Shown here: one piece after another, positions 6,486 to 63,840 of the stretch
How the letters are laid out: every line of letters begins with the position of its first letter
Position numbering within the stretch: position 1 is the first letter of the stretch
Assembly: GCA_020055645.1 (NCBI GenBank)
Contig: CM034546.1
Span: forward strand, 34,224,001 to 34,288,000
Direction of reading: 5' to 3'
Origin: Tomocerus qinae
Lineage: Eukaryota; Arthropoda; Collembola; Entomobryomorpha; Tomoceridae
DNA length: 64,000 nucleotides
Made by a program: the position numbers and the translations under genes
Notes under the pieces: generated by a model
What the model was told of the DNA's origin: nothing
The model's database searches: none
Seen by the model: the letters and a program-made list of their open reading frames with translations, nothing else

Positions 6486-8220
<1,735 letters not shown>

Positions 8221-21159: not shown

Positions 21160-21165
21160 ATTATA
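21160..21165 (+). repeat. Candidate target-site duplication, left (ATTATA)
   Basis: Directly abuts the outer end of the left arm and equals 38383-38388. In AT-rich DNA a chance match is possible. Confidence 0.55.
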
Positions 21166-21189
21166 AGTAGTAAGGGAAGGGGGGGGTAG

Positions 21190-21545
21190 AGCCCATGCAC
21201 GTAAAGGGACAGGGGTATACGGCCCATGCATGGGAAGGTATGTCCCTACTCCTTATACATGGATAGGTATATGTACTCAGGCCCACATGTATTTTCCCTA
21301 TGTACTCCGGCCCACATGCATTTTTCCCTATGTTCTCATGCACTGCATGCCTTCTCCCTTCATTCTCAGCCACACATGTCCCTTTCTTATGCATGGATGC
21401 AGGTATACAGCTGATGCTTGCCTGTATTTGTCCCTATGTACTCAGGCACATGTATTATCTCTATGTATTCAGACACATGCATTATGCCTATGTTCTCAGG
21501 CACATGCATTATGCCTATGTACTCAGGCACATGCATTTATTTATT
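21190..21545. repeat. ~30-bp minisatellite at outer end of left arm
   Basis: Repeats of a unit like CCTATGTACTCAGGCACATG, regular at 21420-21535 and degenerate outward. The same unit recurs at 26270-26370 in the same arm. All three frames stay open by chance and give Cys/His-rich false proteins. Confidence 0.75.
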
Positions 21546-22651
21546 TAAATTGTTTCCAATTAACCCCTTAATTAATCAAATTAATCTTATTCATTCGGTT
21601 GTTCACCAAAAGTTATAAAAAATGTTATTAAAACCAAGATTGCATTTGGTATCGCCAATTTAAAATTGATATGATGCACCACTTTAATTGCAATGAGTTT
21701 CTCAATCGGCCATCAGTTGCATCTAATCTAACTCTGGTCGATGACAACAATCATCAGCTGCTAAGCTATTTTATACTTTGGTACTGAATTTTATTCAAAA
21801 TTTAAACACAAAACTTAAATGAAACTAATTTTTACCATTTCTACTACTTACCACTACTTTTTAGGTGGTGGTATTTAACTTTAAATACCAATGAAACCAA
21901 CTTACCACTGGTAAGTGGTAAACGGTATTTTGTACCAGGGTTTATTGGGTTTTTTTTACAAAGTATACAATAATGTGCACTAAAGCTCCTTCTATATAAG
22001 CAAAACATACTAATATTGTCAGATTTCTATTCAAAAATGTAAACAAATGTATAATTAGGTGGAAACAAAATAATTAGCTCTAATACTTGTAGTAATTCTG
22101 TATCGTGAATCACGTAAATATATAGGCATCACAGTCATGATCGTGATGTCTATATACTTTTACTTACGAATCGCCAATGAATGCTTAGGGGTACATAAGT
22201 GGAAACATTATTTATACTGAATTTTAATTAACCACTAACATATTTATTACTGTACTGCTTTAAGCTCCACATTAATGAAGGAAATTCTTAAAGTCAATGT
22301 AATCAGTAAAATATAATAATGCATCGTTTTTCACTAGTTGTTATCAAACAGTATAATAATTAATATAGGTGCTCACGAAAAATACTATTAACTGTGCTAA
22401 AACATGTTAAAAATTAATTTTTTATGCTCTAATTTTTGATTTTACAGACGCAAATAATGGTAGTTTTAGGATTACATGGTTGTTGTTATTGTCAGCTGTG
22501 GTTTTCCTATATACATTATAGTATATGCTTGTATTTATGCCTATAGTTATATAAAAAACCCTTAAACCAAAAAAATCACAGGTCGAGGGTTTTTTTCCTA
22601 AAAAAACCCGGTTTTTTCGATACCTTGTTTGTACACTGTAGAGAGTCACAA

Positions 22652-22818
22652 TAAGAATGAACTCGATGTGACAAAAACAGCTGTCTTACGGTTAGTTAGT
22701 GAGTGCTATACTTTATTATTCACCAACACTAGCATTAGTAGTCAGAGTGATAATGGATATAGTACTCAGAAAAAATAACTGCAAAACGGCTGTTTTTGTC
22801 GCATCGAGTTCATTCTTA
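22652..22818. mobile_element. Small inverted-repeat element in left arm
   Basis: Ends of about 32 bp (AAGAATGAACTCGATG..., ACAAAAACAGC(T/C)GT) are inverted around a centre of about 100 bp. TA bases sit next to both ends, so a mariner-like MITE is possible. Mirror copy at about 36730-36896. Confidence 0.6.
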
Positions 22819-23007
22819 GTTTGGCTCAACCCACTGGAAAGTAAAGTTAAATCGTATTGACTAATAGAACAGCAATTGTCCATGCAGTTTGACGTACTGT
22901 TTGAATCACCCAACGTCAGACCTCTGGTTGCCCTGTGGTATGGCGACAAGCCTTCTGATTGTCTGAAATTTTTTGAAATCCAGCCTTCTGATTGGCTATT
23001 TCTATGA

Positions 23008-23735
23008 CAAAAATTCTATAGATTACCCAAATGGGGACATTTTAGCAAGTTTCAAATTTTTGCATGCTACAATGCAGTCATATCATGAATCATTTATTTT
23101 ATTGCCCAATTATTTTCATTTCAAGTAGACATTCATTCTGGAATATGATATTGAGCAATGAGAATGTTGCCTGGATACTACAGATGAACCAGGATCGGGT
23201 GATCAGGAATTAGCAGAAACGGTCTGATGTTTAGATATATTTAGTATTCAGACATCTGTCAGTAATCTGTTTGTTGAGTTATTATTTTAAAGGTCGTAAG
23301 AAGAATTTGTACGATACTAGTTTAATATTAATCACAACAATCACAACATTCTTTGTTCGATTATGCACTTTGTATTTATATATCCATAGTGTGTGTTCTT
23401 CCGATTTATACTTGTTTCTCATTGCTCAATATTGTGTTACAGAATAAAAGTCTACATTGAAAGGGAAACTGGTAGGTAATAAAAATAGATGATTCATAGT
23501 TCATGGCTTAAAATTTATAATGTAATAACTGCATAAGATGTGCATGTAAATAGCTCAATATATACATTTCTCATTTCTCATTGCTCATATTCCAGACAGA
23601 ATGAATGTCTACTTGAAATGAATACTATTAGGCAATAAAATAGATGATTCATGATATGACTGCATTGTAGCTTGCAAAAATTCCAAAACTTGCTAAAATG
23701 TCCCTTTTGGGTAATTTATTGAATTTTCGTTTTTG
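23008..23735. mobile_element. Nested foldback element in left arm
   Basis: 23008-23165 and 23590-23735 are inverted copies of each other (ATTACCCAAA, GACATTTTAGCAAG, TGCAGTCATATCATGAATCA). A third, diverged copy of the inner part lies near 23430-23515 (AGTCTACATTGAAAGGG). Mirror copy at about 35813-36540. Confidence 0.65.
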
Positions 23736-23892
23736 AATTAACTAACTTACCTTAACAAGGTAGTAAAATATCTTATAGTTAGAGGGCTCTGCTCCATTCT
23801 GTCGCTTTAAGGCAAAGAGGTTGTAAAGTAGAGCCAAAACCGTAATGCCTTTCAATGGTACAAAAATCAATCCCTATTTGTCTTCGATTATA

Positions 23893-23995
23893 CATTAGTA
23901 GGTATCGTAAAAATTTCGCGCCGTTTAACGGCGGAAGTAGGCGGATGTATTAGTAGGTATCGGTAAATTTTCGCGCCGATTCACGGCGGAGCTAT
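23893..23995. repeat. Two direct repeats each with a CGCCG/CGGCG dyad, left arm
   Basis: Two copies of a block of about 50 bp, themed ATTAGTAGGTATCG then TTTCGCGCCG, each ending in a dyad: CGCCGTTTAACGGCG and CGCCGATTCACGGCG. The first dyad is a perfect palindrome. GC-rich against an AT-rich background. Mirror copy at about 35553-35655. Confidence 0.6.
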
Positions 23996-25053
23996 CCATC
24001 AATGTTATAAAGAAAATATTCTTCACTTTAGCTCTATTCCCTTAATATTATTAGAAACTCTTTGATTTAAGGTTGACTATCAGTAATGTTAATTTCCTAT
24101 CTCAGGAAAGTGAAAATATCTGCAGTAATATTGCACGTACACGATTTTGGTGACTATTGTTGGAAAGATTGAACATTTCCTGGAACTTGTGGACCTCCGA
24201 ATTTTCAAAAACAAACCAAATGGGTCATAATTAGCGTTTCAAAGAAAAATTTTATAGAAAAAGGGCGAGGAAATTTTCTGCGACAATATTGTGATGTATT
24301 TTTATTACAATCAAATAATTTAAAAATCTGAGAGCCACATGTTCCAGATAAATCCTGGAGGATCAACACAAAATTTACCGAAATGAAATCGATCGATTAA
24401 TTTTTGATTTATGTCCACTATTCTAAAGGTCTGTAATTTGAAAAAATGTATAAGCAAAACCATCAGAGAACGACGCATAAATCTAGAGTGGTAGAGTACA
24501 CAAAACAGTTATGGAACTAGAGTTAAAGGTTACAGTGCACACTCAAAACAAACTAGATATTTGTTTTTTGTCCTAGTTCCGTCTTTCTTACATATTTTTG
24601 ATCCGTTTGAAAATATATCCGGATGTTATAAAAGTATGAATTGTCAGCTATCTAATCTGTTGTTTGTGTGCGAAGGTAAATGTAATTTTGTGTTGGCGGA
24701 ATTTTGAGTGCCAAAGGGACTACTTTATACCAGGGACGGATTTAATTTTTAGTATAGTGCAGTTAGCTTTGCTTTTGCTAGCATTGATGTACTTGTGGGA
24801 GGAGCTAAACCTCCACTATTAGTCACCCTTAATTCCTATATTATTATTCTTCCAGTTTAACCCATTAATAATAGTCTAATTCCGTGGTTTGGCTCCACAG
24901 TAAGTATTCATAGCAGAAAAAGGATTTTTTCAAATCCATTAACCAATCTAAGGGAAAATTTGAATGCCTATACTGCCAAACTATTGCGCCACGAATTGGC
25001 GCCTGTTCTCAAACTCCAATCCACCAGAGGTGGTCATGATTTAGTCATTGATT

Positions 25054-25414
25054 GGTATGAATAAGAATACGTATTTACTACCAAATAAAAAGTATAAGTA
25101 AAAGGTATAGACTTGAAGTAAAAGGTAGAAGCAAAAGCATTTGCTTCAAATCGAATGAACAAAATAATACTTTTCCTACCAAGCAATTACTTTGCAATTG
25201 TCAAATTTTTGAAGTAACTACTCAAATTAGAAGTTAATACTAGATAATATTCATACCAAAATGTAGTATTTACTTCTAATGGTAGCAAATGCTTCATGAA
25301 GTTTAACAAATACTTTTAATCTAAGATTAAGCATAAGTAGTTGCTAATATTTTTATTCATACTAAAGAAACCTATTACTTCAAGTAAAAGCTTAAGGTAG
25401 ACCTTATTCATACC
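25054..25414. mobile_element. 361-bp MITE in left arm
   Basis: Ends GGTATGAATAAG and CTTATTCATACC are perfect 12-bp inverted repeats, with weaker symmetry further in (TACTTCAAGT/ACTTGAAGTA-like blocks). Target duplication not evident. Mirror copy at 34136-34496. Confidence 0.65.
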
Positions 25415-26264
25415 ACTCGTTTTCATTGGCTGTCAACTAGCCAATAGTAAGGATTAAATTATGAGAGGTGGCATCAATCAAATATAACAAAGACTTTGGG
25501 CATATTAAGCAGTTTCATGCTTAATCTAAAAGTATATGTATATGCACAGCTAAAAGTTAACTGAATACACCCAGACGCAAACATAAAACAGGCTGCTGCA
25601 CGAAAAAGGCTGAATTGGTCACGATATCACCTTGGTACACACTTGCACTCATGTAATGTCGTAATGCACTGTCCTATGGGACAGTAATCCGTAACCATGG
25701 GATCGAATTACTGTACTGTTGTACAAGCAATGGCACAATGGAAATTCGCAAGGCAAATTTACTACAGCAGCGTTGGCAACTCATGATTTTCCGGAATTGT
25801 TTATATTACTGTGATGAGGAACCTGGTGAATTTCTCCCGTCCAAGGTTCACCCCTTAGGTGGGTTAACTAGTATTCTAAATCTTTTTTTTTTGTTCATGC
25901 AACAGAAATCCCCTACTTTATAGAACTTATAACTAATTTACTTTATAATCCTGTATTTAAATGTGTCTACATGGTGCATTTCACATTCAAGTTTTAGTTA
26001 ACAAGTCCAGTTTTGTAGCTTTTTTCAGTTATGCCATGTCTTAATCTGTTTACTAACTATTTGTTGATCCATTTAAAATTATATTCCATTCAGAATATAA
26101 TTTTAAACCAATTTAGGGAATATATAAACATGGCACATCACAGTGTTATTTTACCTGTTAGTAGAATGGATATTGATACATTGTTAAGTATATACTTATT
26201 TCATGCAATAATAAACATAAATGGAAACTGATAGTCAAACTTTACCTACACATTTTCATTAACA

Positions 26265-27245
26265 CATACATGAATAGGTATGTACCTAAATCTTGCCTGT
26301 ATTTCTCCCTATTTACTCAGGCAAACATGCAGTCTCTCTATGTTCTCAGACACTACATGCCTTCTCCAACATCAGGCAAACATATGACACACACCATTGG
26401 TCAGACATATACAAACGGACAGACACACACGAACCAACAGAAACATATACAAACGAATACTGTCAGACAGATACATAGGTAAAATAAACGCACAGCCGCA
26501 CATACAAACCGACAGAAACATACTCAAACATTCACGTACAAACAGGCACACACTCAATCGGACACGTACAGACACACGCTCAAACATTCATGTACAAACA
26601 AGAACACACTCAAATAGACACGTACAAACAGAACCACACTCACACAAACAGACAGTCACTAACAGAACAGAGAAACACATCACACACAAACTCACATACA
26701 AGCGTGCAGGCATACGGTATGGCCACATACAACACAGACGGACGCACACATAATTCGTACAGACATACAAAAATATAAACCTACTCATACAAAATACGGA
26801 CAAACTCACAAAAATATGAACAAACACAAAAATATAAACTAACACGCAAATAATACAGGCAAAAACATAAATGTGGACAATCATAAAAATACGGCCAGAC
26901 ATATATAAATACGGTCAGACATAAAAAATATAGACAAACATACAAAAATAAGATCAGACGCACAAAAATACGTATAAAACACACAAACATACGAACAAAC
27001 AATCAAACATACGAAAAAACACTCAAACATACGAACAAACACTCAAACATACGAAAAAACACTCAAAAATACGAACAAACACTCAAACATACGGACAAAC
27101 ACTCAACTATACGTACAGTACACACAAACCTACGGACAAACCCACAAAAACATTTACAAAACACACAATCATATGGACAATCACACAAAAATAAGCACAA
27201 AACAGACATAAATATGGACAAACACTTAAAATTATACAAATCAAA
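26265..27245. repeat. A/C-rich tandem array, left arm
   Basis: A short stretch of the 30-bp minisatellite (26270-26370) leads into about 870 bp of short repeats themed ACAAACACTCAAACATACGA, period about 24 bp where regular (26985-27100). The plus strand is strongly A/C biased. Long open frames in all phases are a by-product. Confidence 0.75.
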
Positions 27246-27299
27246 ACAATTTGTTGCACAAATTTTAAATGTTAAACTCGGTTATATAAATACACAATG

Positions 27300-27840
27300 T
27301 TTGAAATGAATGCGGATATCTAACTGAGGTAATGTTTCATACAAATTTTGTAGTTTATATGCAGATGTTTAATTCAAACGTTGTTATACAAATGCAGATG
27401 TTGAATAAAACATTGTAATACAAATATAGATGTTTAATACAAACTTGGTTGTACAAATGCAGATGTTTAATAAAAAATTTTAACACAAACACAGATGTTT
27501 AATAAAAATTGTAATACAAATGCAGATTTTTAATACAAACTTTGTTATATAATTGTAGATGCTTAATACAAACTTACAGTACTAATACATATGATCATTT
27601 TCTCAACTTTGTAATACAAATATAGATGTTTTATTCAAACTGTATAGTATGATTGTTTAATGCAAACACAAATGTTTAATTCGATTTGTATTAAATAAAC
27701 GGGGATGCTTAACTTTATCTGTATTAAATTAATTCGGATGTTTAATTACCATTGTATTAAATCAATGTGGATATCTAATGTTTTAAATTAATGTGGATAT
27801 CTAATTAAAAATATTTGAAATTAATGCGGATATCTAAAGA
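27300..27840. repeat. Degenerate tandem arrays themed CAGATGTTTAATACAAA and GGATATCTAA, left arm
   Basis: About ten blurred copies with a period of 25-35 bp. The theme shifts from ATACAAATGCAGATGTTTAA to TTAATG(T/C)GGATATCTAA. Three more copies of the second theme lie at 28715-28805. Mirror at about 31708-32248 and 30743-30833. Confidence 0.65.
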
Positions 27841-29287
27841 CAAAAGGTTGAGTTGAAGGTAAGCTGCCAAACTGAGCGAACATGACTTGTGGTCCGCACA
27901 CAAAAGCTAACCTGAAATCTCATATACTGGACTATGTGCGTAACATCTGTAAGGTTTATAATATTTACCTATAACGTGTATTTGCAATTTGGTCTCTAAA
28001 TTATACATTTTTAAATATTTATAAAGATTATTGTACTCGTAGACTATATGTGCAGAATGTAATTTCTTATTCAGAATGAGTGAATAAAATCCTGATGGGA
28101 CAGGTAGCTTTTGATTATGTGGATAGTAATGAGAGATAAGTATGTCTATACCAACCCACCGGCCACCAATGCTTTATGTACGGTAAGTGTCGGACCTCGT
28201 GAACGACGCGTACGATCTAGTTCTATTACTTCAAATACGTGCTATAACTGAAAATCACATGGCGTGATCTCAGTCCTCAAATCAGACCACAGTATTGCAA
28301 ACACCATCTACCAATTCAATCTTACAAGCTTCATCACGTATTTCACAGTACGTGACCTGGTTTCGTCTGTGTTGTTTGAGACTTCCAGTACTGTTGTCAC
28401 TATCTGTCTTTTAGTACTATCCTTCCAGTCTTACCTATAAATACTTCCGGGGACTATACTTAAAGAGTAGCTGGTTTAATGGTGTTCGGTTAAAGGCTGT
28501 GATCCCACGTTGAACTCAAGTAAAACAGTAACCACTTCCGACGAACTGTTTAGTGTAAATGTACATTTTCTATAAAGCTATGAGTTGGTCAACATATAGC
28601 GATAGTCAATAATATATTGTAAATGTCATGTCTGAAATTGTATGTATATTGTCAATTCTATGGGCTCCTTGTCCGAAAAGAATGTTAAAGAAATCAATCG
28701 GTACAATAGATGCAAAGTGTTTTAAATTAATGCGGATATCTAATTACAAAGGTTTTAGATTAATGAGGATATCTAAATCCAAATCTTTTAAATTAATGAG
28801 TTTATTTACTGTATTCAGTTATTTTAATGATTAACCAACTCATCCACTTTTCTTCCAAGATTGCAGAATATTATAATATGGGTAGCAATTAACTATACTA
28901 TACATTGGTTTGGATATTTTAGTATTATAAATGAATTTTGAGATATATATCTTATATTTCACTGTATCTAAATGTTTCTAAATTGTCCCCATTTTATGAT
29001 ATAATATGAGATTGGAGAGGAAACCATTTTAAACAACAGAAATGCTTGTCAAATCATGGTTGTTATTTAGTTGTGCTTATAGTTTCATGGTTGATTATAT
29101 AATTATTTATACTCTTTATCATCTAATTCGATAGCAACCAAATTTGGGGAAAGAAATAATTAAGAAAGGGGACATTTAACATTTGCACAGTGAAAATTTA
29201 AAGCAATTTAATTCTTCAACTTGGTAAAAATTGATATATAGTAATCTATACAGCGCCACGAGGGGAGGGAAAGATCCTCGATTACGC

Positions 29288-29575
29288 TTAGCGTATATAT
29301 GCCGAAGGCATACGTCTTACGCTTCGCGTATATATGCCGAAGGCATACGTCTTACCCTTCGCGTATATATGCCCAAAGCATACGTCTTACGCTTCGCGTA
29401 TATATGCCGAAGGCATACGTCTTACGCTTCGCGTATATATGCCGAAGGCATACGTCTTACGCTTCGCGTATATATGCCGAAGGCATACGTCTTACGCTTC
29501 GCGTATATATGTCGAAGGCATACGTCTTACGCTTCGCGTATATATGCCGAAGGCATACGTCCTACGCCATAGGAC
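29288..29575. repeat. 35-bp tandem repeat at inner edge of left arm
   Basis: Eight units themed GCATACGTCTTACGCTTCGC plus GTATATATGCCGAAG. Each contains a dyad (CTTCG...CGAAG) and TATATA. One unit is variant (TTACCCTTCGC, GCCCAAAGC) and the same variant occupies the mirror position on the right. The left array has about two more units than the right. Confidence 0.85.
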
Positions 29576-30029
29576 ATGGTAACATACTTTTTATTTATTG
29601 ATCATTACATACTAATTACTAATAAAAATAGTAAGGCGACACTTTTATTTTCCAGTCAAGTAGATCTACACTTGTACATGTAATTTATTCATGTACAATG
29701 TTAATTACATTTGTGGTTTTAAAGTATTTACAAATGATCAAATTTGGATTGAAGTGAATAGCAAAAATATGGGAAGTTTGATTTAAGGAATGGAAAAAAG
29801 ATTGATTTTTGGACTTCACTGAAACGTTAAAATGAGCAAATCTGAACTTGAATTGAACTGGCGTAATGTAGATATAATTAGGGAAGTATGCCTTTAACAT
29901 TATCAACAGGTATCTTTAAACACTTAATATTTTAAGCTACGTTAATTATGATTCTAAGGATTATTTGTAGTAACATTAATACATTAATTTAGTTGAGTTA
30001 CATTAATAACCAAAGCCTTCGGTTTGTCT
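29576..30029. other. Spacer at the centre of the palindrome
   Basis: Single-copy AT-rich DNA, no mirror symmetry, no gene recognised. A unique spacer of this length argues against a simple template-switch read joining an arm to itself. Confidence 0.7.
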
Positions 30030-30260
30030 TCAGCATATATACGCGAAGCGTAAGACGTATGCCTTCGGCATATATACGCGAAGCGTAAGACGTATGCCTT
30101 CGGCATATATACGCGAAGCGTAAGACGTATGCCTTCGGCATATATACGCGAAGCGTAAGACGTATGCTTTGGGCATATATACGCGAAGGGTAAGACGTAT
30201 GCCTTCGGCATATATACGCGAAGCGTAAGACGTATGCCTTCGGCATATATACGCTAAGCG
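30030..30260. repeat. 35-bp tandem repeat at inner edge of right arm
   Basis: Six units, mirror of the outer part of 29288-29575. The innermost unit is decayed (CTTCAGCATATATACG). Confidence 0.85.
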
Positions 30261-31707
30261 TAATCGAGGATCTTTCCCTCCCCTCGTGGCGCTGTATAGA
30301 TTACTATATATCAATTTTTACCAAGTTGAAGAATTAAATTGCTTTAAATTTTCACTGTGCAAATGTTAAATGTCCCCTTTCTTAATTATTTCTTTCCCCA
30401 AATTTGGTTGCTATCGAATTAGATGATAAAGAGTATAAATAATTATATAATCAACCATGAAACTATAAGCACAACTAAATAACAACCATGATTTGACAAG
30501 CATTTCTGTTGTTTAAAATGGTTTCCTCTCCAATCTCATATTATATCATAAAATGGGGACAATTTAGAAACATTTAGATACAGTGAAATATAAGATATAT
30601 ATCTCAAAATTCATTTATAATACTAAAATATCCAAACCAATGTATAGTATAGTTAATTGCTACCCATATTATAATATTCTGCAATCTTGGAAGAAAAGTG
30701 GATGAGTTGGTTAATCATTAAAATAACTGAATACAGTAAATAAACTCATTAATTTAAAAGATTTGGATTTAGATATCCTCATTAATCTAAAACCTTTTGT
30801 AATTAGATATCCGCATTAATTTAAAACACTTTGCATCTATTGTACCGATTGATTTCTTTAACATTCTTTTCGGACAAGGAGCCCATAGAATTGACAATAT
30901 ACATACAATTTCAGACATGACATTTACAATATATTATTGACTATCGCTATATGTTGACCAACTCATAGCTTTATAGAAAAAAATGTACATTTACACTAAA
31001 CAGTTCGTCGGAAGTGGTTACTGTTTTACTTGAGTTCAACGTGGGATCACAGCCTTTAACCGAACACCATTAAACCAGCTACTCTTTAAGTATAGTCCCC
31101 GGAAGTATTTATAGGTAAGACTGGAAGGATAGTACTAAAAGACAGATAGTGACAACAGTACTGGAAGTCTCAAACAACACAGACGAAACCAGGTCACGTA
31201 CTGTGAAATACGTGATGAAGCTTGTAAGATTGAATTGGTAGATGGTGTTTGCAATACTGTGGTCTGATTTGAGGACTGAGATCACGCCATGTGATTTTCA
31301 GTTATAGCACGTATTTGAAGTAATAGAACTAGATCGTACGCGTCGTTCACGAGGTCCGACACTTACCGTACATAAAGCATTGGTGGCCGGTGGGTTGGTA
31401 TAGACATACTTATCTCTCATTACTATCCACATAATCAAAAGCTACCTGTCCCATCAGGATTTTATTCACTCATTCTGAATAAGAAATTACATTCTGCACA
31501 TATAGTCTACGAGTACAATAATCTTTATAAATATTTAAAAATGTATAATTTAGAGACCAAATTGCAAATACACGTTATAGGTAAATATTATAAACCTTAC
31601 AGATGTTACGCACATAGTCCAGTATATGAGATTTCAGGTTAGCTTTTGTGTGCGGACCACAAGTCATGTTCGCTCAGTTTGGCAGCTTACCTTCAACTCA
31701 ACCTTTT

Positions 31708-32248
31708 GTCTTTAGATATCCGCATTAATTTCAAATATTTTTAATTAGATATCCACATTAATTTAAAACATTAGATATCCACATTGATTTAATACAATGG
31801 TAATTAAACATCCGAATTAATTTAATACAGATAAAGTTAAGCATCCCCGTTTATTTAATACAAATCGAATTAAACATTTGTGTTTGCATTAAACAATCAT
31901 ACTATACAGTTTGAATAAAACATCTATATTTGTATTACAAAGTTGAGAAAATGATCATATGTATTAGTACTGTAAGTTTGTATTAAGCATCTACAATTAT
32001 ATAACAAAGTTTGTATTAAAAATCTGCATTTGTATTACAATTTTTATTAAACATCTGTGTTTGTGTTAAAATTTTTTATTAAACATCTGCATTTGTACAA
32101 CCAAGTTTGTATTAAACATCTATATTTGTATTACAATGTTTTATTCAACATCTGCATTTGTATAACAACGTTTGAATTAAACATCTGCATATAAACTACA
32201 AAATTTGTATGAAACATTACCTCAGTTAGATATCCGCATTCATTTCAA
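31708..32248. repeat. Degenerate tandem arrays, right arm
   Basis: Mirror copy of 27300-27840. Confidence 0.65.
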
Positions 32249-32302
32249 ACATTGTGTATTTATATAACCGAGTTTAACATTTAAAATTTGTGCAACAAAT
32301 TG

Positions 32303-33283
32303 TTTTGATTTGTATAATTTTAAGTGTTTGTCCATATTTATGTCTGTTTTGTGCTTATTTTTGTGTGATTGTCCATATGATTGTGTGTTTTGTAAATGTT
32401 TTTGTGGGTTTGTCCGTAGGTTTGTGTGTACTGTACGTATAGTTGAGTGTTTGTCCGTATGTTTGAGTGTTTGTTCGTATTTTTGAGTGTTTTTTCGTAT
32501 GTTTGAGTGTTTGTTCGTATGTTTGAGTGTTTTTTCGTATGTTTGATTGTTTGTTCGTATGTTTGTGTGTTTTATACGTATTTTTGTGCGTCTGATCTTA
32601 TTTTTGTATGTTTGTCTATATTTTTTATGTCTGACCGTATTTATATATGTCTGGCCGTATTTTTATGATTGTCCACATTTATGTTTTTGCCTGTATTATT
32701 TGCGTGTTAGTTTATATTTTTGTGTTTGTTCATATTTTTGTGAGTTTGTCCGTATTTTGTATGAGTAGGTTTATATTTTTGTATGTCTGTACGAATTATG
32801 TGTGCGTCCGTCTGTGTTGTATGTGGCCATACCGTATGCCTGCACGCTTGTATGTGAGTTTGTGTGTGATGTGTTTCTCTGTTCTGTTAGTGACTGTCTG
32901 TTTGTGTGAGTGTGGTTCTGTTTGTACGTGTCTGTTTGAGTGTGTTCTTGTTTGTACATGAATGTTTGAGCGTGTGTCTGTACGTGTCCGATTGAGTGTG
33001 TGCCTGTTTGTACGTGAATGTTTGAGTATGTTTCTGTCGGTTTGTATGTGCGGCTGTGCGTTTATTTTACCTATGTATCTGTCTGACAGTATTCGTTTGT
33101 ATATGTTTCTGTTGGTTCGTGTGTGTCTGTCCGTTTGTATATGTCTGACCAATGGTGTGTGTCATATGTTTGCCTGATGTTGGAGAAGGCATGTAGTGTC
33201 TGAGAACATAGAGAGACTGCATGTTTGCCTGAGTAAATAGGGAGAAATACAGGCAAGATTTAGGTACATACCTATTCATGTAT
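32303..33283. repeat. G/T-rich tandem array, right arm
   Basis: Mirror copy of 26265-27245; here the plus strand is G/T biased (GTTTGAGTGTTTGTTCGTAT). Confidence 0.75.
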
Positions 33284-34135
33284 GTGTTAATGAAAATGTG
33301 TAGGTAAAGTTTGACTATCAGTTTCCATTTATGTTTATTATTGCATGAAATAAGTATATACTTAACAATGTATCAATATCCATTCTACTAACAGGTAAAA
33401 TAACACTGTGATGTGCCATGTTTATATATTCCCTAAATTGGTTTAAAATTATATTCTGAATGGAATATAATTTTAAATGGATCAACAAATAGTTAGTAAA
33501 CAGATTAAGACATGGCATAACTGAAAAAAGCTACAAAACTGGACTTGTTAACTAAAACTTGAATGTGAAATGCACCATGTAGACACATTTAAATACAGGA
33601 TTATAAAGTAAATTAGTTATAAGTTCTATAAAGTAGGGGATTTCTGTTGCATGAACAAAAAAAAAAAGATTTAGAATACTAGTTAACCCACCTAAGGGGT
33701 GAACCTTGGACGGGAGAAATTCACCAGGTTCCTCATCACAGTAATATAAACAATTCCGGAAAATCATGAGTTGCCAACGCTGCTGTAGTAAATTTGCCTT
33801 GCGAATTTCCATTGTGCCATTGCTTGTACAACAGTACAGTAATTCGATCCCATGGTTACGGATTACTGTCCCATAGGACAGTGCATTACGACATTACATG
33901 AGTGCAAGTGTGTACCAAGGTGATATCGTGACCAATTCAGCCTTTTTCGTGCAGCAGCCTGTTTTATGTTTGCGTCTGGGTGTATTCAGTTAACTTTTAG
34001 CTGTGCATATACATATACTTTTAGATTAAGCATGAAACTGCTTAATATGCCCAAAGTCTTTGTTATATTTGATTGATGCCACCTCTCATAATTTAATCCT
34101 TACTATTGGCTAGTTGACAGCCAATGAAAACGAGT

Positions 34136-34496
34136 GGTATGAATAAGGTCTACCTTAAGCTTTTACTTGAAGTAATAGGTTTCTTTAGTATGAATAAAAA
34201 TATTAGCAACTACTTATGCTTAATCTTAGATTAAAAGTATTTGTTAAACTTCATGAAGCATTTGCTACCATTAGAAGTAAATACTACATTTTGGTATGAA
34301 TATTATCTAGTATTAACTTCTAATTTGAGTAGTTACTTCAAAAATTTGACAATTGCAAAGTAATTGCTTGGTAGGAAAAGTATTATTTTGTTCATTCGAT
34401 TTGAAGCAAATGCTTTTGCTTCTACCTTTTACTTCAAGTCTATACCTTTTACTTATACTTTTTATTTGGTAGTAAATACGTATTCTTATTCATACC
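34136..34496. mobile_element. 361-bp MITE in right arm
   Basis: Mirror copy of 25054-25414. Confidence 0.65.
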
Positions 34497-35812
34497 AATC
34501 AATGACTAAATCATGACCACCTCTGGTGGATTGGAGTTTGAGAACAGGCGCCAATTCGTGGCGCAATAGTTTGGCAGTATAGGCATTCAAATTTTCCCTT
34601 AGATTGGTTAATGGATTTGAAAAAATCCTTTTTCTGCTATGAATACTTACTGTGGAGCCAAACCACGGAATTAGACTATTATTAATGGGTTAAACTGGAA
34701 GAATAATAATATAGGAATTAAGGGTGACTAATAGTGGAGGTTTAGCTCCTCCCACAAGTACATCAATGCTAGCAAAAGCAAAGCTAACTGCACTATACTA
34801 AAAATTAAATCCGTCCCTGGTATAAAGTAGTCCCTTTGGCACTCAAAATTCCGCCAACACAAAATTACATTTACCTTCGCACACAAACAACAGATTAGAT
34901 AGCTGACAATTCATACTTTTATAACATCCGGATATATTTTCAAACGGATCAAAAATATGTAAGAAAGACGGAACTAGGACAAAAAACAAATATCTAGTTT
35001 GTTTTGAGTGTGCACTGTAACCTTTAACTCTAGTTCCATAACTGTTTTGTGTACTCTACCACTCTAGATTTATGCGTCGTTCTCTGATGGTTTTGCTTAT
35101 ACATTTTTTCAAATTACAGACCTTTAGAATAGTGGACATAAATCAAAAATTAATCGATCGATTTCATTTCGGTAAATTTTGTGTTGATCCTCCAGGATTT
35201 ATCTGGAACATGTGGCTCTCAGATTTTTAAATTATTTGATTGTAATAAAAATACATCACAATATTGTCGCAGAAAATTTCCTCGCCCTTTTTCTATAAAA
35301 TTTTTCTTTGAAACGCTAATTATGACCCATTTGGTTTGTTTTTGAAAATTCGGAGGTCCACAAGTTCCAGGAAATGTTCAATCTTTCCAACAATAGTCAC
35401 CAAAATCGTGTACGTGCAATATTACTGCAGATATTTTCACTTTCCTGAGATAGGAAATTAACATTACTGATAGTCAACCTTAAATCAAAGAGTTTCTAAT
35501 AATATTAAGGGAATAGAGCTAAAGTGAAGAATATTTTCTTTATAACATTGATGGATAGCTCCGCCGTGAATCGGCGCGAAAATTTACCGATACCTACTAA
35601 TACATCCGCCTACTTCCGCCGTTAAACGGCGCGAAATTTTTACGATACCTACTAATGTATAATCGAAGACAAATAGGGATTGATTTTTGTACCATTGAAA
35701 GACATTACGGTTTTGGCTCTACTTTACAACCTCTTTGCCTTAAAGCGACAGAATGGAGCAGAGCCCTCTAACTATAAGATATTTTACTACCTTGTTAAGG
35801 TAAGTTAGTTAA

Positions 35813-36540
35813 TTCAAAAACGAAAATTCAATAAATTACCCAAAAGGGACATTTTAGCAAGTTTTGGAATTTTTGCAAGCTACAATGCAGTCATATCATG
35901 AATCATCTATTTTATTGCCTAATAGTATTCATTTCAAGTAGACATTCATTCTGTCTGGAATATGAGCAATGAGAAATGAGAAATGTATATATTGAGCTAT
36001 TTACATGCACATCTTATGCAGTTATTACATTATAAATTTTAAGCCATGAACTATGAATCATCTATTTTTATTACCTACCAGTTTCCCTTTCAATGTAGAC
36101 TTTTATTCTGTAACACAATATTGAGCAATGAGAAACAAGTATAAATCGGAAGAACACACACTATGGATATATAAATACAAAGTGCATAATCGAACAAAGA
36201 ATGTTGTGATTGTTGTGATTAATATTAAACTAGTATCGTACAAATTCTTCTTACGACCTTTAAAATAATAACTCAACAAACAGATTACTGACAGATGTCT
36301 GAATACTAAATATATCTAAACATCAGACCGTTTCTGCTAATTCCTGATCACCCGATCCTGGTTCATCTGTAGTATCCAGGCAACATTCTCATTGCTCAAT
36401 ATCATATTCCAGAATGAATGTCTACTTGAAATGAAAATAATTGGGCAATAAAATAAATGATTCATGATATGACTGCATTGTAGCATGCAAAAATTTGAAA
36501 CTTGCTAAAATGTCCCCATTTGGGTAATCTATAGAATTTT
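35813..36540. mobile_element. Nested foldback element in right arm
   Basis: Mirror copy of 23008-23735. Confidence 0.65.
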
Positions 36541-36729
36541 TGTCATAGAAATAGCCAATCAGAAGGCTGGATTTCAAAAAATTTCAGACAATCAGAAGGC
36601 TTGTCGCCATACCACAGGGCAACCAGAGGTCTGACGTTGGGTGATTCAAACAGTACGTCAAACTGCATGGACAATTGCTGTTCTATTAGTCAATACGATT
36701 TAACTTTACTTTCCAGTGGGTTGAGCCAA

Positions 36730-36896
36730 ACTAAGAATGAACTCGATGCGACAAAAACAGCCGTTTTGCAGTTATTTTTTCTGAGTACTATATCCATTAT
36801 CACTCTGACTACTAATGCTAGTGTTGGTGAATAATAAAGTATAGCACTCACTAACTAACCGTAAGACAGCTGTTTTTGTCACATCGAGTTCATTCT
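36730..36896. mobile_element. Small inverted-repeat element in right arm
   Basis: Mirror copy of 22652-22818. It was present before the arms became inverted copies, or was carried along by conversion. Confidence 0.6.
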
Positions 36897-38002
36897 TATT
36901 GTGACTCTCTACAGTGTACAAACAAGGTATCGAAAAAACCGGGTTTTTTTAGGAAAAAACCCTCGACCTGTGATTTTTTTGGTTTAAGGGTTTTTTATAT
37001 AACTATAGGCATAAATACAAGCATATACTATAATGTATATAGGAAAACCACAGCTGACAATAACAACAACCATGTAATCCTAAAACTACCATTATTTGCG
37101 TCTGTAAAATCAAAAATTAAGGCATAAAAATTTAATTTTTAACATGTTTTAGCACAGTTAACGGTATTTTTCGTGAGCACCTATATTAATTATTATACTG
37201 TTTGATAACAACTAGTGAAAAACGATGCATTATTATATTTTACTGATTACATTGACTTTAAGAATTTCCTTCATTAATGTGGAGCTTAAAGCAGTACAGT
37301 AATAAATATGTTAGTGGTTAATTAAAATTCAGTATAAATAATGTTTCCACTTATGTACCCCTAAGCATTCATTGGCGATTCGTAAGTAAAAGTATATAGA
37401 CATCACGATCATGACTGTGATGCCTATATATTTACGTGATTCACGATACAGAATTACTACAAGTATTAGAGCTAATTATTTTGTTTCCACCTAATTATAC
37501 ATTTGTTTACATTTTTGAATAGAAATCTGACAATATTAGTATGTTTTGCTTATATAGAAGGAGCTTTAGTGCACATTATTGTATACTTTGTAAAAAAAAC
37601 CCAATAAACCCTGGTACAAAATACCGTTTACCACTTACCAGTGGTAAGTTGGTTTCATTGGTATTTAAAGTTAAATACCACCACCTAAAAAGTAGTGGTA
37701 AGTAGTAGAAATGGTAAAAATTAGTTTCATTTAAGTTTTGTGTTTAAATTTTGAATAAAATTCAGTACCAAAGTATAAAATAGCTTAGCAGCTGATGATT
37801 GTTGTCATCGACCAGAGTTAGATTAGATGCAACTGATGGCCGATTGAGAAACTCATTGCAATTAAAGTGGTGCATCATATCAATTTTAAATTGGCGATAC
37901 CAAATGCAATCTTGGTTTTAATAACATTTTTTATAACTTTTGGTGAACAACCGAATGAATAAGATTAATTTGATTAATTAAGGGGTTAATTGGAAACAAT
38001 TT

Positions 38003-38358
38003 AAATAAATAAATGCATGTGCCTGAGTACATAGGCATAATGCATGTGCCTGAGAACATAGGCATAATGCATGTGTCTGAATACATAGAGATAATACATG
38101 TGCCTGAGTACATAGGGACAAATACAGGCAAGCATCAGCTGTATACCTGCATCCATGCATAAGAAAGGGACATGTGTGGCTGAGAATGAAGGGAGAAGGC
38201 ATGCAGTGCATGAGAACATAGGGAAAAATGCATGTGGGCCGGAGTACATAGGGAAAATACATGTGGGCCTGAGTACATATACCTATCCATGTATAAGGAG
38301 TAGGGACATACCTTCCCATGCATGGGCCGTATACCCCTGTCCCTTTACGTGCATGGGC
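38003..38358. repeat. ~30-bp minisatellite at outer end of right arm
   Basis: Mirror copy of 21190-21545. Confidence 0.75.
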
Positions 38359-38382
38359 TCTACCCCCCCTTCCCTTACTACT

Positions 38383-38388
38383 ATTATA
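38383..38388 (+). repeat. Candidate target-site duplication, right (ATTATA)
   Basis: Directly abuts the outer end of the right arm and equals 21160-21165. Confidence 0.55.
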
Positions 38389-38827
38389 CAAATTTTATTG
38401 TTTACTTGCAATTAGTTTTCAGCTATATCGAAGTTGTATTGAGTGAGACCTTATATTATATGTGTTAGCGGCAATAAGTGAATTCAGGCATTAAGCTTAA
38501 TGCCTAGGCATTAAGTGTAATTTTGAAACATTTTAGTTTTTCGTACTTAAAATTTGAAAGAACATTCATATTCATTATTTCGTATGTGTATGTGAATAAG
38601 GACAATTTTAGAAGTCCAAAAAGGTAAAGATGTTTACGGTGTCATGAATAAGGACCGAGTTATAGACCTTCAAAATTAGTACTACAAAATTTGATATACA
38701 TATATACGGCCTCAATACAAATGTAATAGTACAAATAATAAGCCAAACAAATAAATGGGCTATAAATATACATGAAACAAATATAACTTTTATGACTAAA
38801 TGTATTCGGATCGTTGCCACGAAAATA

Positions 38828-39755: not shown

Positions 39756-41019
39756 CTTTTTAGTTCTTTTCGTCCTCATTTGACTACCTAACTTATCTAT
39801 CTATTCAAAATTATCTCTAATCATTTCTACCTCTGAGGCTATATCCATAGTGGAGATGTTTGTGTTCTCACAATAATTGTATAAGAGAAATTATTATCAT
39901 TTAACACAAAATTACCAAAATAATGGCGGAAATTAAGTTTAATAATATGAACATTCATTTTAAATAAAGAGAGAAGACTTTGAGGAATTAGATTATCAGA
40001 TTTCAATTAAATCACTACTTTCAGTAGTTCTGATCTAACCTGTTAAATACAATACGTGATGTCCTGAAACAATAAACATTCCTTTCTCCTTTACCAACAG
40101 CCCTACAACTTTACCAAATTCTGTAGGCAATGTTTTTGACAGAAGTGTCTAGGCCATTATCAAATATTCATATCGCTATATTTGTGTGTGTTTGCTCGGC
40201 AGGTTAGTACTCCTGAGAAATGAAAAGGAATGCTAGCCTGAAGTGACTACTAGCACAGTTAAATACTACTGTAGCTATATTCTGTAGCTATATATTCACA
40301 GTGTAAGTCTCAAGACAAAAGTCACACAAACAATTGCCTCGAACCTTTCGAGGTCTTAAAATTAAATGGCAGCCAGTTTGAAGCTCAATTGATGCCAAAC
40401 CAAAGTAGGACACCATATGCTAAGCCTTTTCAGTCAACTTGTAAGAGTTTATTATCGCTGGTAATTGTGGTAATGCAGTTTTCCTCCCTTTGTTTCAAGT
40501 TTCATAGATTTCAGTTTAAAAGCTAAATTCCGAGATACATATCGTCCCTTTAAGACTAAGACGAAAAAACCTCTATCTATTTTTAGGTTGGTACAGGAGC
40601 CCTACATCCATACTCTTGTTAGTAGATTTTCCTGCATTTCCCCGTTTTTTACCTGCACCAAACAAAAAATGGATATTGCCTTTATCCTTCCTTTAAGAAC
40701 GATATGCACTAGGTCTTTTTGTGGTCAAATGTAATCGTTCTCCTCCTTCAGCCATTTCAGATTTACTATTGTAGATTGCAAATATTCTACCTTTCAGTGC
40801 TAATGTTCTTGTTTCTATTTCTTTAGTACACATGTACTCATTGTAAGTGCACACGTACCAAATGCCCTTGTTTTGACCGTGGAATTATTTCGGCACGCCG
40901 TATTATTGTATCAAAGCGTGGTATTTACTGGGAAATAATTCGAAATAATTCTCCTTCCGGGGAATTATATCGATTATTATCGGTATTTGATTTTCGTATC
41001 ACAGCTAGATACTAATAAT

Positions 41020-42835
41020 AAAATTAAAAAGTAAAAACTTAAAAAAACTCATAGGGAGACGCGAGAAAAACCAGAAAACAAGGAATAATAAAGTTTCTGG
41101 ATAATCAGAATATCTCGTAAATTAAAAAACATATATACCCCAGACTACCGGTTGAAATTGTTTTTGAATCATTTTTAGCATTGTGAAATTGGAAAGTGTG
41201 AGTAGAAGAAATAGTGTGTTGTAATTTGGTCGCTATCAAGATGTCTTAAATCTCAATGGTCCCACTTCCACTAGATATACAAGGTAGAGACAAATGCAAG
41301 TCTCAAACTGTAAGTATATAGGAGTATCGTAACTCATATGACAATGTGCTAATTCTCTGCAGTCAATTAATTGATAGTAGAAGTCTAAATTTTCGATTAT
41401 CTCCATCCGGTATCTGTCAAAGCCAACCTGCGAGATTCCCTATCACTTTTAATTTTTTGTGTTGCTTTAGCTTGGGATATAATCATAATCATGATCCCTG
41501 TATAGGGAAATTTTCGCCGTGTGGCGTTACATAGCTAAGCAACAAAAAATTCTGACTGTACCCGGAATTCTAAACCCTGCCTGGGTCAAACCACTATTGT
41601 CATTTAGATTAGTTTCAGCCGACTCTAAATTTTCCGAAAGATATTCATTTTCTTTCTTATGCAGTGAGGTATTTTCATAATTTTTAATCCATTTCAGGAG
41701 AATCTTTTTGAATCAGGCCAAAGGATTTTCAATATTATAATTTACAGTATTTGTTTATTAATTTACTTTATTTATTAATTTGCGTGAAAAGATTATTTTG
41801 AAATTGTAATTTCAACCGGGAGACTGGGGTATATATGTTTTTTAATTTACGAGATATTCTGATTATCCAGAAACTTTATTATTCCTTGTTTTCTGGTTTT
41901 TCTCGCGTCTCCCTATGAGTTTTTTTAAGTTTTTACTTTTTAATTTATTTTATAGTTTTTATTGTTCATATGTAATGTAGTTGAACTATTCTATTGAACG
42001 TTATAGCGGTATAAGTGAGAATGTTTAGGGATGTTGTACATAAAACAATATTTTTCCATTCCTGAAATATTTCCCCATTTCTAAAAAAAATTTATGTCCC
42101 TGGAGTATTTTTCAATTTTGAAGAATAATTTTCAGTCCTAGAATATTCCTCAATTTCGAAAATTGATTGAGCTTATTCCAATTTCTAAAACATTCAATCC
42201 CTAGAATTTTCCCTCATTTCGGAAATGTCTATCTCTGACTGTCTATCATTTGTTCGCAAAAGTATTAATAATATACTCAATCAAATAATATCAGTATTTG
42301 GATTTATGGGGGGCTCTGCCTCCCAACCCCCGCCAGGGGAATGAAAAGTGAGTGTTGTGGTTGTAGTTGGTGGTACCAGTAATTCAATCCTTTGGGTTAG
42401 TATTATGCAACGGTATTCAGTCACCGTGTGTATTACTATGACAAGAGTGGATTGAGAGGACGTGATAATACGGATTGGAAAGAGTAGTACAGTAGTACAC
42501 TATACTATTACTGCACTACTAGCACTACTGCACTGTATCTACGGAAACTAAATTTGACAATTGAATTATGCTAACCAAACAAGGTCACAACCGAATCTTC
42601 TGGCTCTAGCGGGAGAACCGGTCCTCCGACAGAGTTGCTGAATTAAAGCACACTCCGTCGAAGAATTGTTTACTATTACTGTCTCTATAATTTTTGCCCA
42701 GAAGTTTCAAGTTTTCGAGATATCCTTTACAGAAATTTTCGAACCCCAACCCAACCTCATACATAGGGATTGACAAATCCTGAGAGCAGTTAGCCTGCCT
42801 CGAATGTCTCCCTATGAAAAATATTCTACAATATC
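41020..42835 (+). mobile_element. X-family DNA element, copy X3
   Basis: The left repeat (CTCATAGGGAGACGCGAG, then AAACCAGAAAACAAGGAAT, 41031-41165) recurs inverted at 41810-41950. A tail follows with GGGGGGCTCTGCCTCCCAAC near 42310, TTCAGTCACC, CTAGCGGGAGAACCGG and a short inverted end TGTCTCCCTATGA near 42815. It is collinear with X4. No coding capacity. Confidence 0.75.
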
Positions 42836-43521
42836 AAAATGGTTAATTTCAATATTCGAGTGCTCACTTCATTTACAAAAACAATTATATTTGACACTTT
42901 TATATCCACACATTAGAGTACTCGAACATTACATTCTACTGACCATATTAAAATTAGTGATTGTTTGCAGGCGACTTGGATGATCCTTTCACCCTAGTTA
43001 ATCACAATAAATATAAAGGAAGACGAACATTAGTAAATGAAGTTCAAAGCAAGTGACAAAGACTACGCTGTTAAACTTGTGAAAATTTGGAAGTCAATAT
43101 TCTCCCTAAATTTTTAATAAAGAAATTTTTAGTATTGTAAAATTAGGAAAGGTTATTTCACTTCAACCTCTTTTCGGTTTACGTAAACATTAATTTCGTT
43201 AATCAAAGAAAAGGATGCAAGAAAAATTTTCGGGGAGAATATAAATTCCAGAAGTTAAACAGTTAAACAAGTTTTACGATACAGTCCTTGTCGTATGGCT
43301 TCAACTTCATTTGATAATGTCCGTCTTCCTTTGCATTGTGCTTAACTACAATGAAGGAATAATCCAAGTCCCATGCAAGAAAGTTGCTATTTTGAATGTG
43401 ATCGTTGGAATGTGGAATTTGAGCATAATGGGTAGATATTAAAGTGACTGTATAACTGTTTTTGTAAATTAAGTTAGCACTCTAATATTGAAATTAACCA
43501 TTTTGATTTAGTAGAATATTT
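42820..43521. mobile_element. Foldback element abutting X3
   Basis: About 75 bp at 42820-42900 (AATATTCTAC, TCAAAATGGTTAATTTCAAT, GAGTGCTCACTT) recurs inverted at about 43440-43521. The interior of about 540 bp is non-coding. It begins where X3 ends, so one inserted beside or into the other. Confidence 0.65.
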
Positions 43522-44118
43522 TATTTTTAGTATCTAGCTGCGGTGCGGCTTCCATTGGTTTACTGACGCTTGCATCACATAAAATTGAGTACAGGGGTTG
43601 AATGAACTATAGCCACGAAGTCAAATATTTAGAGCAGTGCTACATTTATGGCTGAATGTACTAGAATCAATGTTCGAAAGTTAAAGTTGTAATTGTGTTA
43701 TTAAAATAAACATTTTCGTAGAAATCAATTTTCACTATTAATTACATACAACTGCTCTATCTAAGAAACGCATAATGTATACAGGAATATTGCTTTACCC
43801 CGGTTGGATGAATAATATATTTTTGCTAACTTTTAACTGACATTTAAAAAAATCGATTGCAAAAATTTAGACCCGGTTGCTAAAGTTGACGGAAATAAGG
43901 AAATTTTGCAATTCGTTTTGAACCATTTATTAAACACAGTAAGAAACAAGAAATAACTACAATAGAGCAAAATGCAAGGCAAATATATTTAGTGACAAGA
44001 AACGAATTGACTTCCATTAAACATGGAAAAATATTAAATTTGAGATAATATTGTAATTAATGATACGTAAATCACATTATCCTTCATTAAACTTAGAGTG
44101 AGGAATGTCAGAATAGTT
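43522..44118 (-). other. Dicer 3' UTR and downstream flank
   Basis: AATAAA on the minus strand (43926-43931), about 190 bases past the Dicer stop, is the likely polyadenylation signal. 43910-44118 is the part copied in the fossil at 16880-18259. Confidence 0.5.
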
Positions 44119-62790: not shown

Positions 62791-63840
62791 TCAAGTACAA
62801 AATTGTTTTTTGCAGTTATTGTTTTCATTTCGTTTTATCCAAATCATGTAATGTGTAACATTTGTATACACGCCAACTTCGTGAGGAGGAGGATTTTTAC
62901 ATTCTGTACCGTATGATACGACTCCACAGAGAAATTGCGAGCGATTGTCTTTAGATTTACATACCATTGGTCCTCCTGAATCTCCTCTACACGCATCTGG
63001 TCCATGCGAACCACCTCCACACCTTTGCAAACCTTTGCTGGAGACGTTATGTTTTTCACACGATTGTATTTCAATAGTTGCAACTTGAAGTCTGTGAACA
63101 TCTGTTTCTGATTCGAATTTGTATCCCCATCCACTTATTTGTGCAGAATCTTACAACAATGAAAAATGTTTTTAGGTTAGTATTAATACTAAAACTGTAT
63201 TAATTAATTCTTTTGCTAATCGTGACCTAAATGGTTAAAATCTTTATCATTGCCTTCGTTTATCAACAAAATACCATTTTCCGTATATTGTTAGCACTAA
63301 CCCTCAATCTCAATTTATATGTGGTTTTTTTGGATTTCTTAATTCAACAGATTACATAACCACACAAATACATCTCAATCTGTTTTGTAATAATATATGC
63401 CTAGTAATGCATTGTAACTGTTATATTTTTAATACTTGATAATTGGGTATCCTTCAGAGGTATAATTGAAAGTGCTTCAATTCTTTTCGGTATTTTTTTC
63501 AAAGGTGTCCGCAATTTTACTAGAGCAATGTCATTGTAGGAATTTTTATCTTTTTCGTCATAATTTGGGTGTATAATAACGAGGCACGCCTTTGAGACTT
63601 GTCTTATTGAACTGTTTTCGTGGACCTCCTTAATACCTGCAGTAACCGTAACTTCCATTTTAGACGTCGCTTTCGGGAAGCAATGGGCTGCAGTGATTAT
63701 TTCGGTAAAGTAATGCGCTTTCGGGTTTCTTGAATAAATACTTCCCCCACAACGATAATCAGTACCGTCAACTACAGTTTTAATGAGTACCTGAAAGGGA
63801 ATATAATCCGAATCCATTCCTCCGCCTATTTTTCTTTTGG
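62791..63840 (-). CDS. Trypsin-like (S1 family) serine protease, 5' end unresolved
   Basis: Two exons: 63436-63840 and 62791-63149, joined in frame at GT-AG sites. The protease domain starts at a typical activation site, KRK|IGGGMDSD. It has the catalytic His in IITAAHCFP, Asp in YNDIALVKL and Ser in CRGDSGGPM. The Asp in GPDACRGDSGG, six residues before the Ser, is S1-pocket Asp189, so it should cut after Arg/Lys. SYGTEC replaces the usual SWGxGC. The tail (NENNNCKKQFCT) has two cysteines. The signal peptide and pro-segment are not found: AG at 63841 looks like an acceptor, so an earlier exon may lie upstream or past the window. An alternative start at 63868 or 63889 reads through in frame but gives no signal peptide. 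Secreted, digestive or immune role unknown. Confidence 0.85.

What the first reader, a model, noticed from the sequence alone, without database searches (positions are those of the whole stretch)
21166..38382. 17.2-kb near-perfect palindrome bounded by a 6-bp direct repeat
Two arms of about 8.4 kb are inverted copies over their full length, with coordinates pairing to a near-constant sum (59545-59550). Ends are sharp: AGTAGTAAGG against its exact complement, ATTATA directly outside both, and unrelated DNA beyond. Arms this long, with only scattered substitutions and small indels, imply a very young event or arm-to-arm conversion. The outer duplication suggests the whole palindrome integrated as a unit, which would be an unusually large foldback element.
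Basis: partly seen in the sequence, partly recalled or inferred. Interest (0 to 1): 0.9.

Follow-up and report, generated by a model that had tools for sequence, protein, structure and literature searches.

The report
Giant palindromic, gene-free Maverick-ended transposon
A 17-kilobase stretch of an animal-like genome is two mirror-image 8.3-kb copies of DNA without recognisable genes that seem to have jumped in as one piece, with the end signature of Mavericks (virus-like giant transposons), which suggests a virus-style folded-back defective genome caught in a chromosome.

Summary
Two arms (21166-29511 and 30034-38382) are 99.8% identical inverted copies around a 522-bp spacer, flanked by a perfect 6-bp duplication ATTATA. 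The ends are AGTAGT...ACTACT, the commonest terminal motif of vertebrate Mavericks/Polintons, which also make 6-bp target duplications and average 16.9 kb (PMC8097293). Of 421 AGTAGT/ACTACT pairs in the window, only this one has identical hexamers outside. So 'integrated as a unit' is well supported, and a Maverick-type integrase is a more specific attribution than 'foldback element'. No Maverick gene was found: all 33 stop-free frames of 60 aa or more inside left arm plus spacer gave no Pfam match above cut-off. Older nested repeats lie at mirrored places in both arms, so the arm was probably gene-free before it was mirrored. I propose a non-autonomous Maverick derivative made palindromic by copy-back (snapback) replication of a protein-primed linear genome, then integrated by integrase supplied in trans. 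Ends and duplication are shown; Maverick ancestry and copy-back are inferred. The host genome is not held, so empty site, sister copies and an autonomous partner could not be tested.

The parts
21160..21165 (+). left copy of 6-bp target-site duplication ATTATA
21166..29511 (+). left arm (8346 bp), begins AGTAGTAAGG; one half of the palindrome
21166..21171 (+). terminal (AGT)2 motif, as at the 5' end of many vertebrate Mavericks
21270..21537 (+). subterminal region with 27-29-bp tandem repeats (arrays 21270-21338 and 21433-21537); a related stretch recurs in the same orientation inside the arm at 26292-26367
22643..22827 (.). nested short inverted-repeat element, present at the mirrored place in the other arm (36723-36907)
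23007..23730 (.). nested MITE-like inverted repeat (its two arms about 86% alike), present at the mirrored place in the other arm (35820-36543)
26402..27641 (+). stretch with several degenerate minisatellite arrays inside the arm
29282..29567 (+). 35-bp array, 8 full units, the consensus unit folding as two triloop hairpins; first 6 units identical unit for unit in the right arm
29512..30033 (.). 522-bp spacer between the arms (its left end is the rest of the left 35-bp array); no gene match
30028..30263 (-). inverted 35-bp array, about 6.7 units
30034..38382 (-). right arm (8349 bp), inverted copy of the left arm, 99.8% identical
38377..38382 (+). terminal (ACT)2 motif
38383..38388 (+). right copy of target-site duplication ATTATA

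Best explanation
A non-autonomous, palindromic derivative of a Maverick/Polinton, inserted as one piece. A linear extrachromosomal Maverick-type genome with (AGT)2 ends is replicated from its ends by a protein-primed polymerase. During strand displacement a new strand switched near the 35-bp hairpin array, folded back and copied itself to its own 5' end. The product is a linear molecule in which both ends are the same end and both halves are the same half. Both ends being functional, an integrase supplied in trans inserted it into ATTATA with a 6-bp stagger. Shown: palindrome, ends, duplication, no recognisable genes, older repeats shared by both arms, and hairpin arrays at the arm/spacer boundary. 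Inferred: Maverick ancestry (from end motif, duplication length and size only), integrase in trans, and copy-back before integration.
For: Ends AGTAGT//ACTACT plus a perfect 6-bp duplication exactly where arm identity stops. Vertebrate Mavericks: (AGT)2//(ACT)2 most common end motif, 6-bp duplications, 12,723-24,620 bp, mean 16,862 +/- 1,678 (PMC8097293, passages and one section); this element is 17,217 bp. Of 421 AGTAGT/ACTACT pairs more than 500 bp apart in the window, 1 has identical flanking hexamers, this one. The ends were fixed by arm identity before the motif was looked up. Polintons carry protein-primed PolB and a retroviral-like integrase (passages). Nested older repeats and the variant array units (1 and 3) match place for place between arms, so the whole arm was copied at once or later homogenised. 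Arm identity ends inside unit 7 of the hairpin array; four units fold better than all 200 shuffles on each strand (z -3.25 and -3.08), a single unit less clearly (z -2.09, 6 of 200 shuffles as good). Snapback genomes, symmetric and asymmetric, are a major class of defective particles in another linear-genome virus, AAV (PMC8235507, abstract and passages).
Against: No Maverick gene: 33 of 33 stop-free frames of 60 aa or more lying inside left arm plus spacer were searched, none above Pfam cut-off (the closest, Tnp_P_element 22.7 bits against cut-off 23, comes from a frame of the 35-bp repeat with no single stretch passing). Stop-free lengths are not unusual against Markov null sequences. A simple snapback of an intact Maverick should carry half its genes. 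Vertebrate Maverick inverted repeats span 46-1,447 bp, not 8.3 kb. No significant extra copy of the 35-bp unit that could have primed foldback was found in the spacer (93 of 500 shuffles as good). The end motif is documented, in what I read, for vertebrates; this host's group is unknown. No second copy of the element is known.
Confidence: 0.5

Rival explanations
1. Maverick-ended element that integrated with ordinary short inverted repeats and became palindromic in place, by conversion or break repair copying one half over the other (inverted-repeat expansion).
For: Inverted-repeat extension by copying is proposed for Galileo, and expansion of Polinton inverted repeats is mentioned there with citations to others (PMC3573991, passages and part of the reference list; the cited works not seen). 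A cluster of 5 of 7 arm differences within about 43 bp looks like a patch from another template, a possible sign of conversion.
Against: Requires inverted repeats to grow until they fill 97% of a 17-kb element while both outer ends and both duplications stay exact. Near-uniform identity over 8.3 kb shows no sign of stepwise growth, though conversion could erase it.
Confidence: 0.25
2. A giant foldback-type element of another DNA transposon superfamily; AGTAGT ends are coincidence.
For: Long inverted repeats with tandem repeats inside are the foldback look; the Galileo copies with the longest inverted repeats are non-autonomous (PMC3573991). No Maverick gene found. A 7-bp reading TATTATA exists. 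Another long inverted repeat lies at 9612-11561. A frame of the 35-bp repeat comes just under the cut-off of a P-element transposase profile, though no single stretch passes.
Against: Galileo passages speak of 7-bp sequences at its ends and inverted repeats of 18-1,250 bp; IS3EU has 6-bp duplications but TA..TA ends; Ginger has TGTNR ends and 4-5 bp. The end motif is an unlikely coincidence: AGTAGT occurs 35 times on the + strand in 64 kb, about 1 in 1,800 positions.
Confidence: 0.2
3. Assembly or library artefact (for example a missed hairpin adapter, or collapsed inverted duplicates).
For: Long palindromes are known artefact products (recalled); arm differences include five homopolymer indels of the kind made by read errors.
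Against: Different flanks on the two sides, a 522-bp spacer, unequal hairpin arrays (8.2 against 6.7 units) and a duplication at exact motif-bearing ends are not expected from a folded read.
Confidence: 0.05

Closest known systems
Maverick/Polinton (Polintoviricetes) virus-like transposons
   Same: (AGT)2//(ACT)2 ends, 6-bp target duplication, about 17 kb, terminal inverted repeats (PMC8097293)
   Different: inverted repeats fill 97% of the element (8.3 kb each against 46-1,447 bp); no polymerase, integrase, ATPase or capsid gene recognised
Snapback defective genomes of AAV (PMC8235507, abstract and passages)
   Same: self-complementary genome made of one moiety, symmetric or asymmetric
   Different: AAV replicates from terminal repeats by rolling hairpin, without a protein primer (partly recalled); here the form sits in a chromosome and has no recognised gene
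Foldback / Galileo-type elements
   Same: very long, internally repetitive inverted repeats, non-autonomous, short middle
   Different: duplication 6 bp rather than 7 (Galileo) or 9 (foldback, recalled); arms more than six times longer than the Galileo maximum in PMC3573991; terminal sequences not compared
Hairpin/palindromic derivatives of yeast protein-primed linear plasmids and adenovirus incomplete genomes
   Same: protein-primed linear replicons giving inverted dimers (recalled from older work; the listings did not show those papers)
   Different: extrachromosomal, in yeast or in virions

Membership tests
Maverick/Polinton | 6-bp target-site duplication | tested here: met
   ATTATA at exact ends
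Maverick/Polinton | (AGT)2//(ACT)2 or (AG)3//(CT)3 ends | tested here: met
   AGTAGT...ACTACT against PMC8097293
Maverick/Polinton | length 12.7-24.6 kb (vertebrate intact copies) | tested here: met
   17,217 bp (range)
Maverick/Polinton | protein-primed polymerase, integrase, ATPase, capsid genes | tested here: not met
   none in 33 of 33 frames of 60 aa or more inside left arm plus spacer; shorter or frameshifted remnants not tested. Hence not an autonomous Maverick; at most a non-autonomous derivative
Maverick/Polinton | terminal inverted repeats of 46-1,447 bp | tested here: not met
   8.35 kb; an observed range in vertebrates, not a definition
Maverick/Polinton | autonomous partner with the same termini in the genome | not testable with these tools
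   no whole genome held
Foldback / Galileo | long inverted repeats with internal tandem repeats | tested here: met
Foldback / Galileo | 7-bp (Galileo) or 9-bp (foldback, recalled) duplication | tested here: not met
   6 bp in the symmetric reading; 7 bp only with unequal ends
IS3EU / GingerRoot | 6-bp duplication with TA..TA ends | tested here: not met
   duplication length fits, ends are AG..CT
Ginger1/Ginger2 | TGTNR ends, 4-5 bp duplication | tested here: not met

The most novel reading that the evidence does not exclude
A germline-fixed snapback (defective-interfering-type) genome of a Maverick virus: the replication error of a protein-primed virus, both halves and both ends the same, kept at unit genome length and inserted by the virus's own integrase. 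If transcribed it would yield a very long double-stranded RNA of the virus's terminal half, a potential source of small RNAs against its helper.
Probability: 0.3. Interest if true: 0.78.

Novelty: new variant of a known kind. Interest (0 to 1): 0.55.

Why it matters
Maverick particles had not been observed as of PMC8097293 (abstract start), and their replication outside the chromosome is inferred from their genes (my reading). A palindromic genome with intact integration ends would be a fossil of the replication intermediate: evidence for copy-back, for integration in trans and, from its unit length, for a size limit such as packaging. It would also give a way to look for defective-interfering Mavericks: search genomes for (AGT)2//(ACT)2 palindromes with 6-bp duplications.

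Tried and rejected
Terminal, subterminal and 35-bp-unit patterns gave 0 exact matches in viral contigs. The 35-bp unit core gave 0 in genome contigs. A 17-mer of the end gave 6 bacterial or archaeal contig pieces, each agreeing with the element for only 17-18 bp, hence chance. A 2.5-kb piece of the arm (of 8.3 kb) found nothing among phages. Rfam at gathering thresholds: 0 matches in the window. The idea that a leftover copy of the 35-bp unit in the spacer served as the foldback primer was tested and not supported. Arm against the rest of the window: three weak matches only (E 0.003-0.009, 63-87 columns, 67-70% identity). Flanks against the window: the left flank had nothing better than E 0.07; the right flank had weak matches (best E 5e-4 over 32 bp, to itself inverted; 63 bp at 70% to the arm's minisatellites, E 0.001); the printed output was cut, so some right-flank rows and all rows of the joined empty-site query were not seen and that query gave no result. 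Literature: no paper in the held library contains the phrases non-autonomous or nonautonomous Polinton or Maverick, Polinton-N1, or palindromic Maverick; this says nothing about papers not held. The paper I recall as the original Polinton description and a Polinton review were not held. Searches on foldback/palindrome terms were seen as listings only, except for papers named here.
Full report
OBSERVATION. Self-comparison of the window pairs 30034-38393 with 29511-21153 in inverted order at 99.8% identity. By the alignment and the end comparison the arms are 21166-29511 and 30034-38382 with 522 bp between them. Identity stops at AGTAGT on the left and ACTACT on the right; directly outside lies ATTATA on both sides, and beyond that the flanks differ (the BLAST pairing runs some bases further only because ATTATA resembles its own complement). 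In one search the first listed difference (an A at 38382) is an offset of my own slice, not a real difference.

ARM DIFFERENCES. Leaving out the central array, the arms differ by 7 substitutions and 5 indels. The indels are all length changes in homopolymers: G8/G7, T7/T6, T10/T11, T4/T7, A3/A4. Five substitutions sit in about 43 bp at 22386-22429; a rough estimate of chance is 1.5e-8. That patch hints at copying from a different template. The two remaining substitutions in 8.3 kb mean a recent origin or continuing conversion; these cannot be told apart here.

CHANCE. In this window 575 of 782,220 inverted hexamer pairs lying 5-40 kb apart have identical hexamers directly outside, so a 6-bp duplication by chance at two fixed ends has a probability near 7e-4. 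The motif AGTAGT occurs 35 times and ACTACT 24 times on the + strand of the 64 kb; of 421 ordered pairs more than 500 bp apart one has matching flanking hexamers, and it is this element. Since the ends were fixed by arm identity, motif and duplication are largely independent support.

WHAT THE ENDS SAY. In a survey of vertebrate Mavericks the commonest terminal motif is (AGT)2 at the 5' end with (ACT)2 at the 3' end; potentially intact copies have 6-bp target duplications and measure 12,723-24,620 bp (mean 16,862, SD 1,678) with inverted repeats of 46-1,447 bp (PMC8097293: passages, its section on architecture). The element here has that motif, that duplication length, and 17,217 bp. Other superfamilies with similar duplications differ at the ends: IS3EU has 6 bp with TA..TA, GingerRoot 6 bp with mostly TA..TA, Ginger 4-5 bp with TGTNR, as stated in passages of PMC10045372 and PMC2836005.

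WHAT IS MISSING. No stop-free frame inside the arms exceeds 140 aa, and the longest ones lie in tandem repeats. All 33 frames of at least 60 aa lying inside left arm plus spacer were searched against Pfam; none passed a curated cut-off. Of 30 such frames between 29900 and 38382, six are not identical to a left frame; two of these six were searched (33555-33893 and 30001-30300), again without a match above cut-off. Frames crossing the outer ends were not searched. The nearest miss, Tnp_P_element at 22.7 bits against 23, comes from a frame of the 35-bp array in which no single stretch passes. Stop-free lengths of three stretches are matched by Markov null sequences (64, 50 and 17 of 200 as long). 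Shorter or frameshifted gene remnants cannot be excluded. The element is therefore not an autonomous Maverick.

AGE ORDER. Two older inverted-repeat elements, 23007-23730 (arms about 86% alike) and 22643-22827, sit at mirrored places in both arms. They were in the arm sequence before it was mirrored, or have been homogenised since. That argues against a one-step snapback of an intact Maverick and for a snapback of an already non-autonomous derivative.

THE CENTRE. At the inner edge of each arm lies an array of a 35-bp unit, 8.2 units on the left and 6.7 on the right. The consensus unit folds as two triloop hairpins of five and six pairs (z -2.09; 6 of 200 shuffles as good), and four units fold better than all 200 shuffles on either strand (z -3.25, -3.08). 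The first six units, including the two variant units 1 and 3, are identical in order between arms, so the array was copied, not grown twice. Arm identity ends within unit 7. This is where a polymerase might be expected to stall and switch, but I found no significant leftover unit in the spacer to act as primer (93 of 500 shuffles as good), so the switch point is suggestive only.

MECHANISM. [quoted passage not shown] Such polymerases displace one strand while copying (established for phi29 and adenovirus; recalled); a strand that folds back and copies itself gives a duplex hairpin and then a linear palindrome whose two ends are both competent (inference). Snapback genomes, symmetric or asymmetric, form a major class of defective particles in AAV, where dimers may in theory allow double-stranded RNA transcription (PMC8235507, abstract and passages). 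Similar products in yeast linear plasmids and adenovirus are recalled, not seen. The main rival is growth of the inverted repeat after integration; the Galileo paper proposes that route and mentions expansion of Polinton inverted repeats with citations.

SURROUNDINGS. The host is a eukaryote, probably an animal (inference): a Dicer-like helicase stretch at 52472-53485 (no Pfam match) and an RNase III stretch at 46129-46560 (below cut-off); a stretch I read as eIF5B (57506-57943, no Pfam match; 60342-60716, IF-2 below cut-off); a trypsin-like protease at 62794-63150; an NB-ARC protein at 1-1200 (above cut-off); and a flavin oxidoreductase fragment at 6489-7007 (below cut-off). No whole genome is held, so species, sister copies and the empty site are open.

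VERDICT. A real, precisely bounded giant palindrome with Maverick-type ends and no recognised genes, most likely integrated as a unit. New variant of a known kind; the copy-back origin is the most likely of the routes considered but is not shown.

Noticed in passing
window 9612-11561: A second, smaller foldback-like inverted repeat: arms of about 720 bp, 98.8% identical, around a 510-bp spacer, ends GACAGAAATT, with TTTG outside both ends.
   Followed up: partly
window 41011-41956 and 47924-48865: Two related MITE-like elements (inverted repeats of about 140-150 bp, about 81-84% alike between copies), one within the Dicer-like region.
   Followed up: no
window 14313-15210 and 42818-43522: Further MITE-like inverted repeats; ends of the latter read AAAATATT..AATATTTT.
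   Followed up: no
window 46129-53485, minus strand: Pieces of a Dicer-like gene (helicase part matches solved Dicers, best an entry named AncD1D2; RNase III part below Pfam cut-off) about 8 kb from the palindrome.
   Followed up: partly
window 21288-21357 and 26298-26367: The subterminal repeat of the element recurs 5 kb inside each arm in the same orientation (83% over 71 columns), hinting at an older rearrangement within the arm.
   Followed up: partly
window 22386-22429 against 37120-37163: Five of the seven arm-to-arm substitutions lie in this patch of about 43 bp, as if copied from a diverged template.
   Followed up: partly
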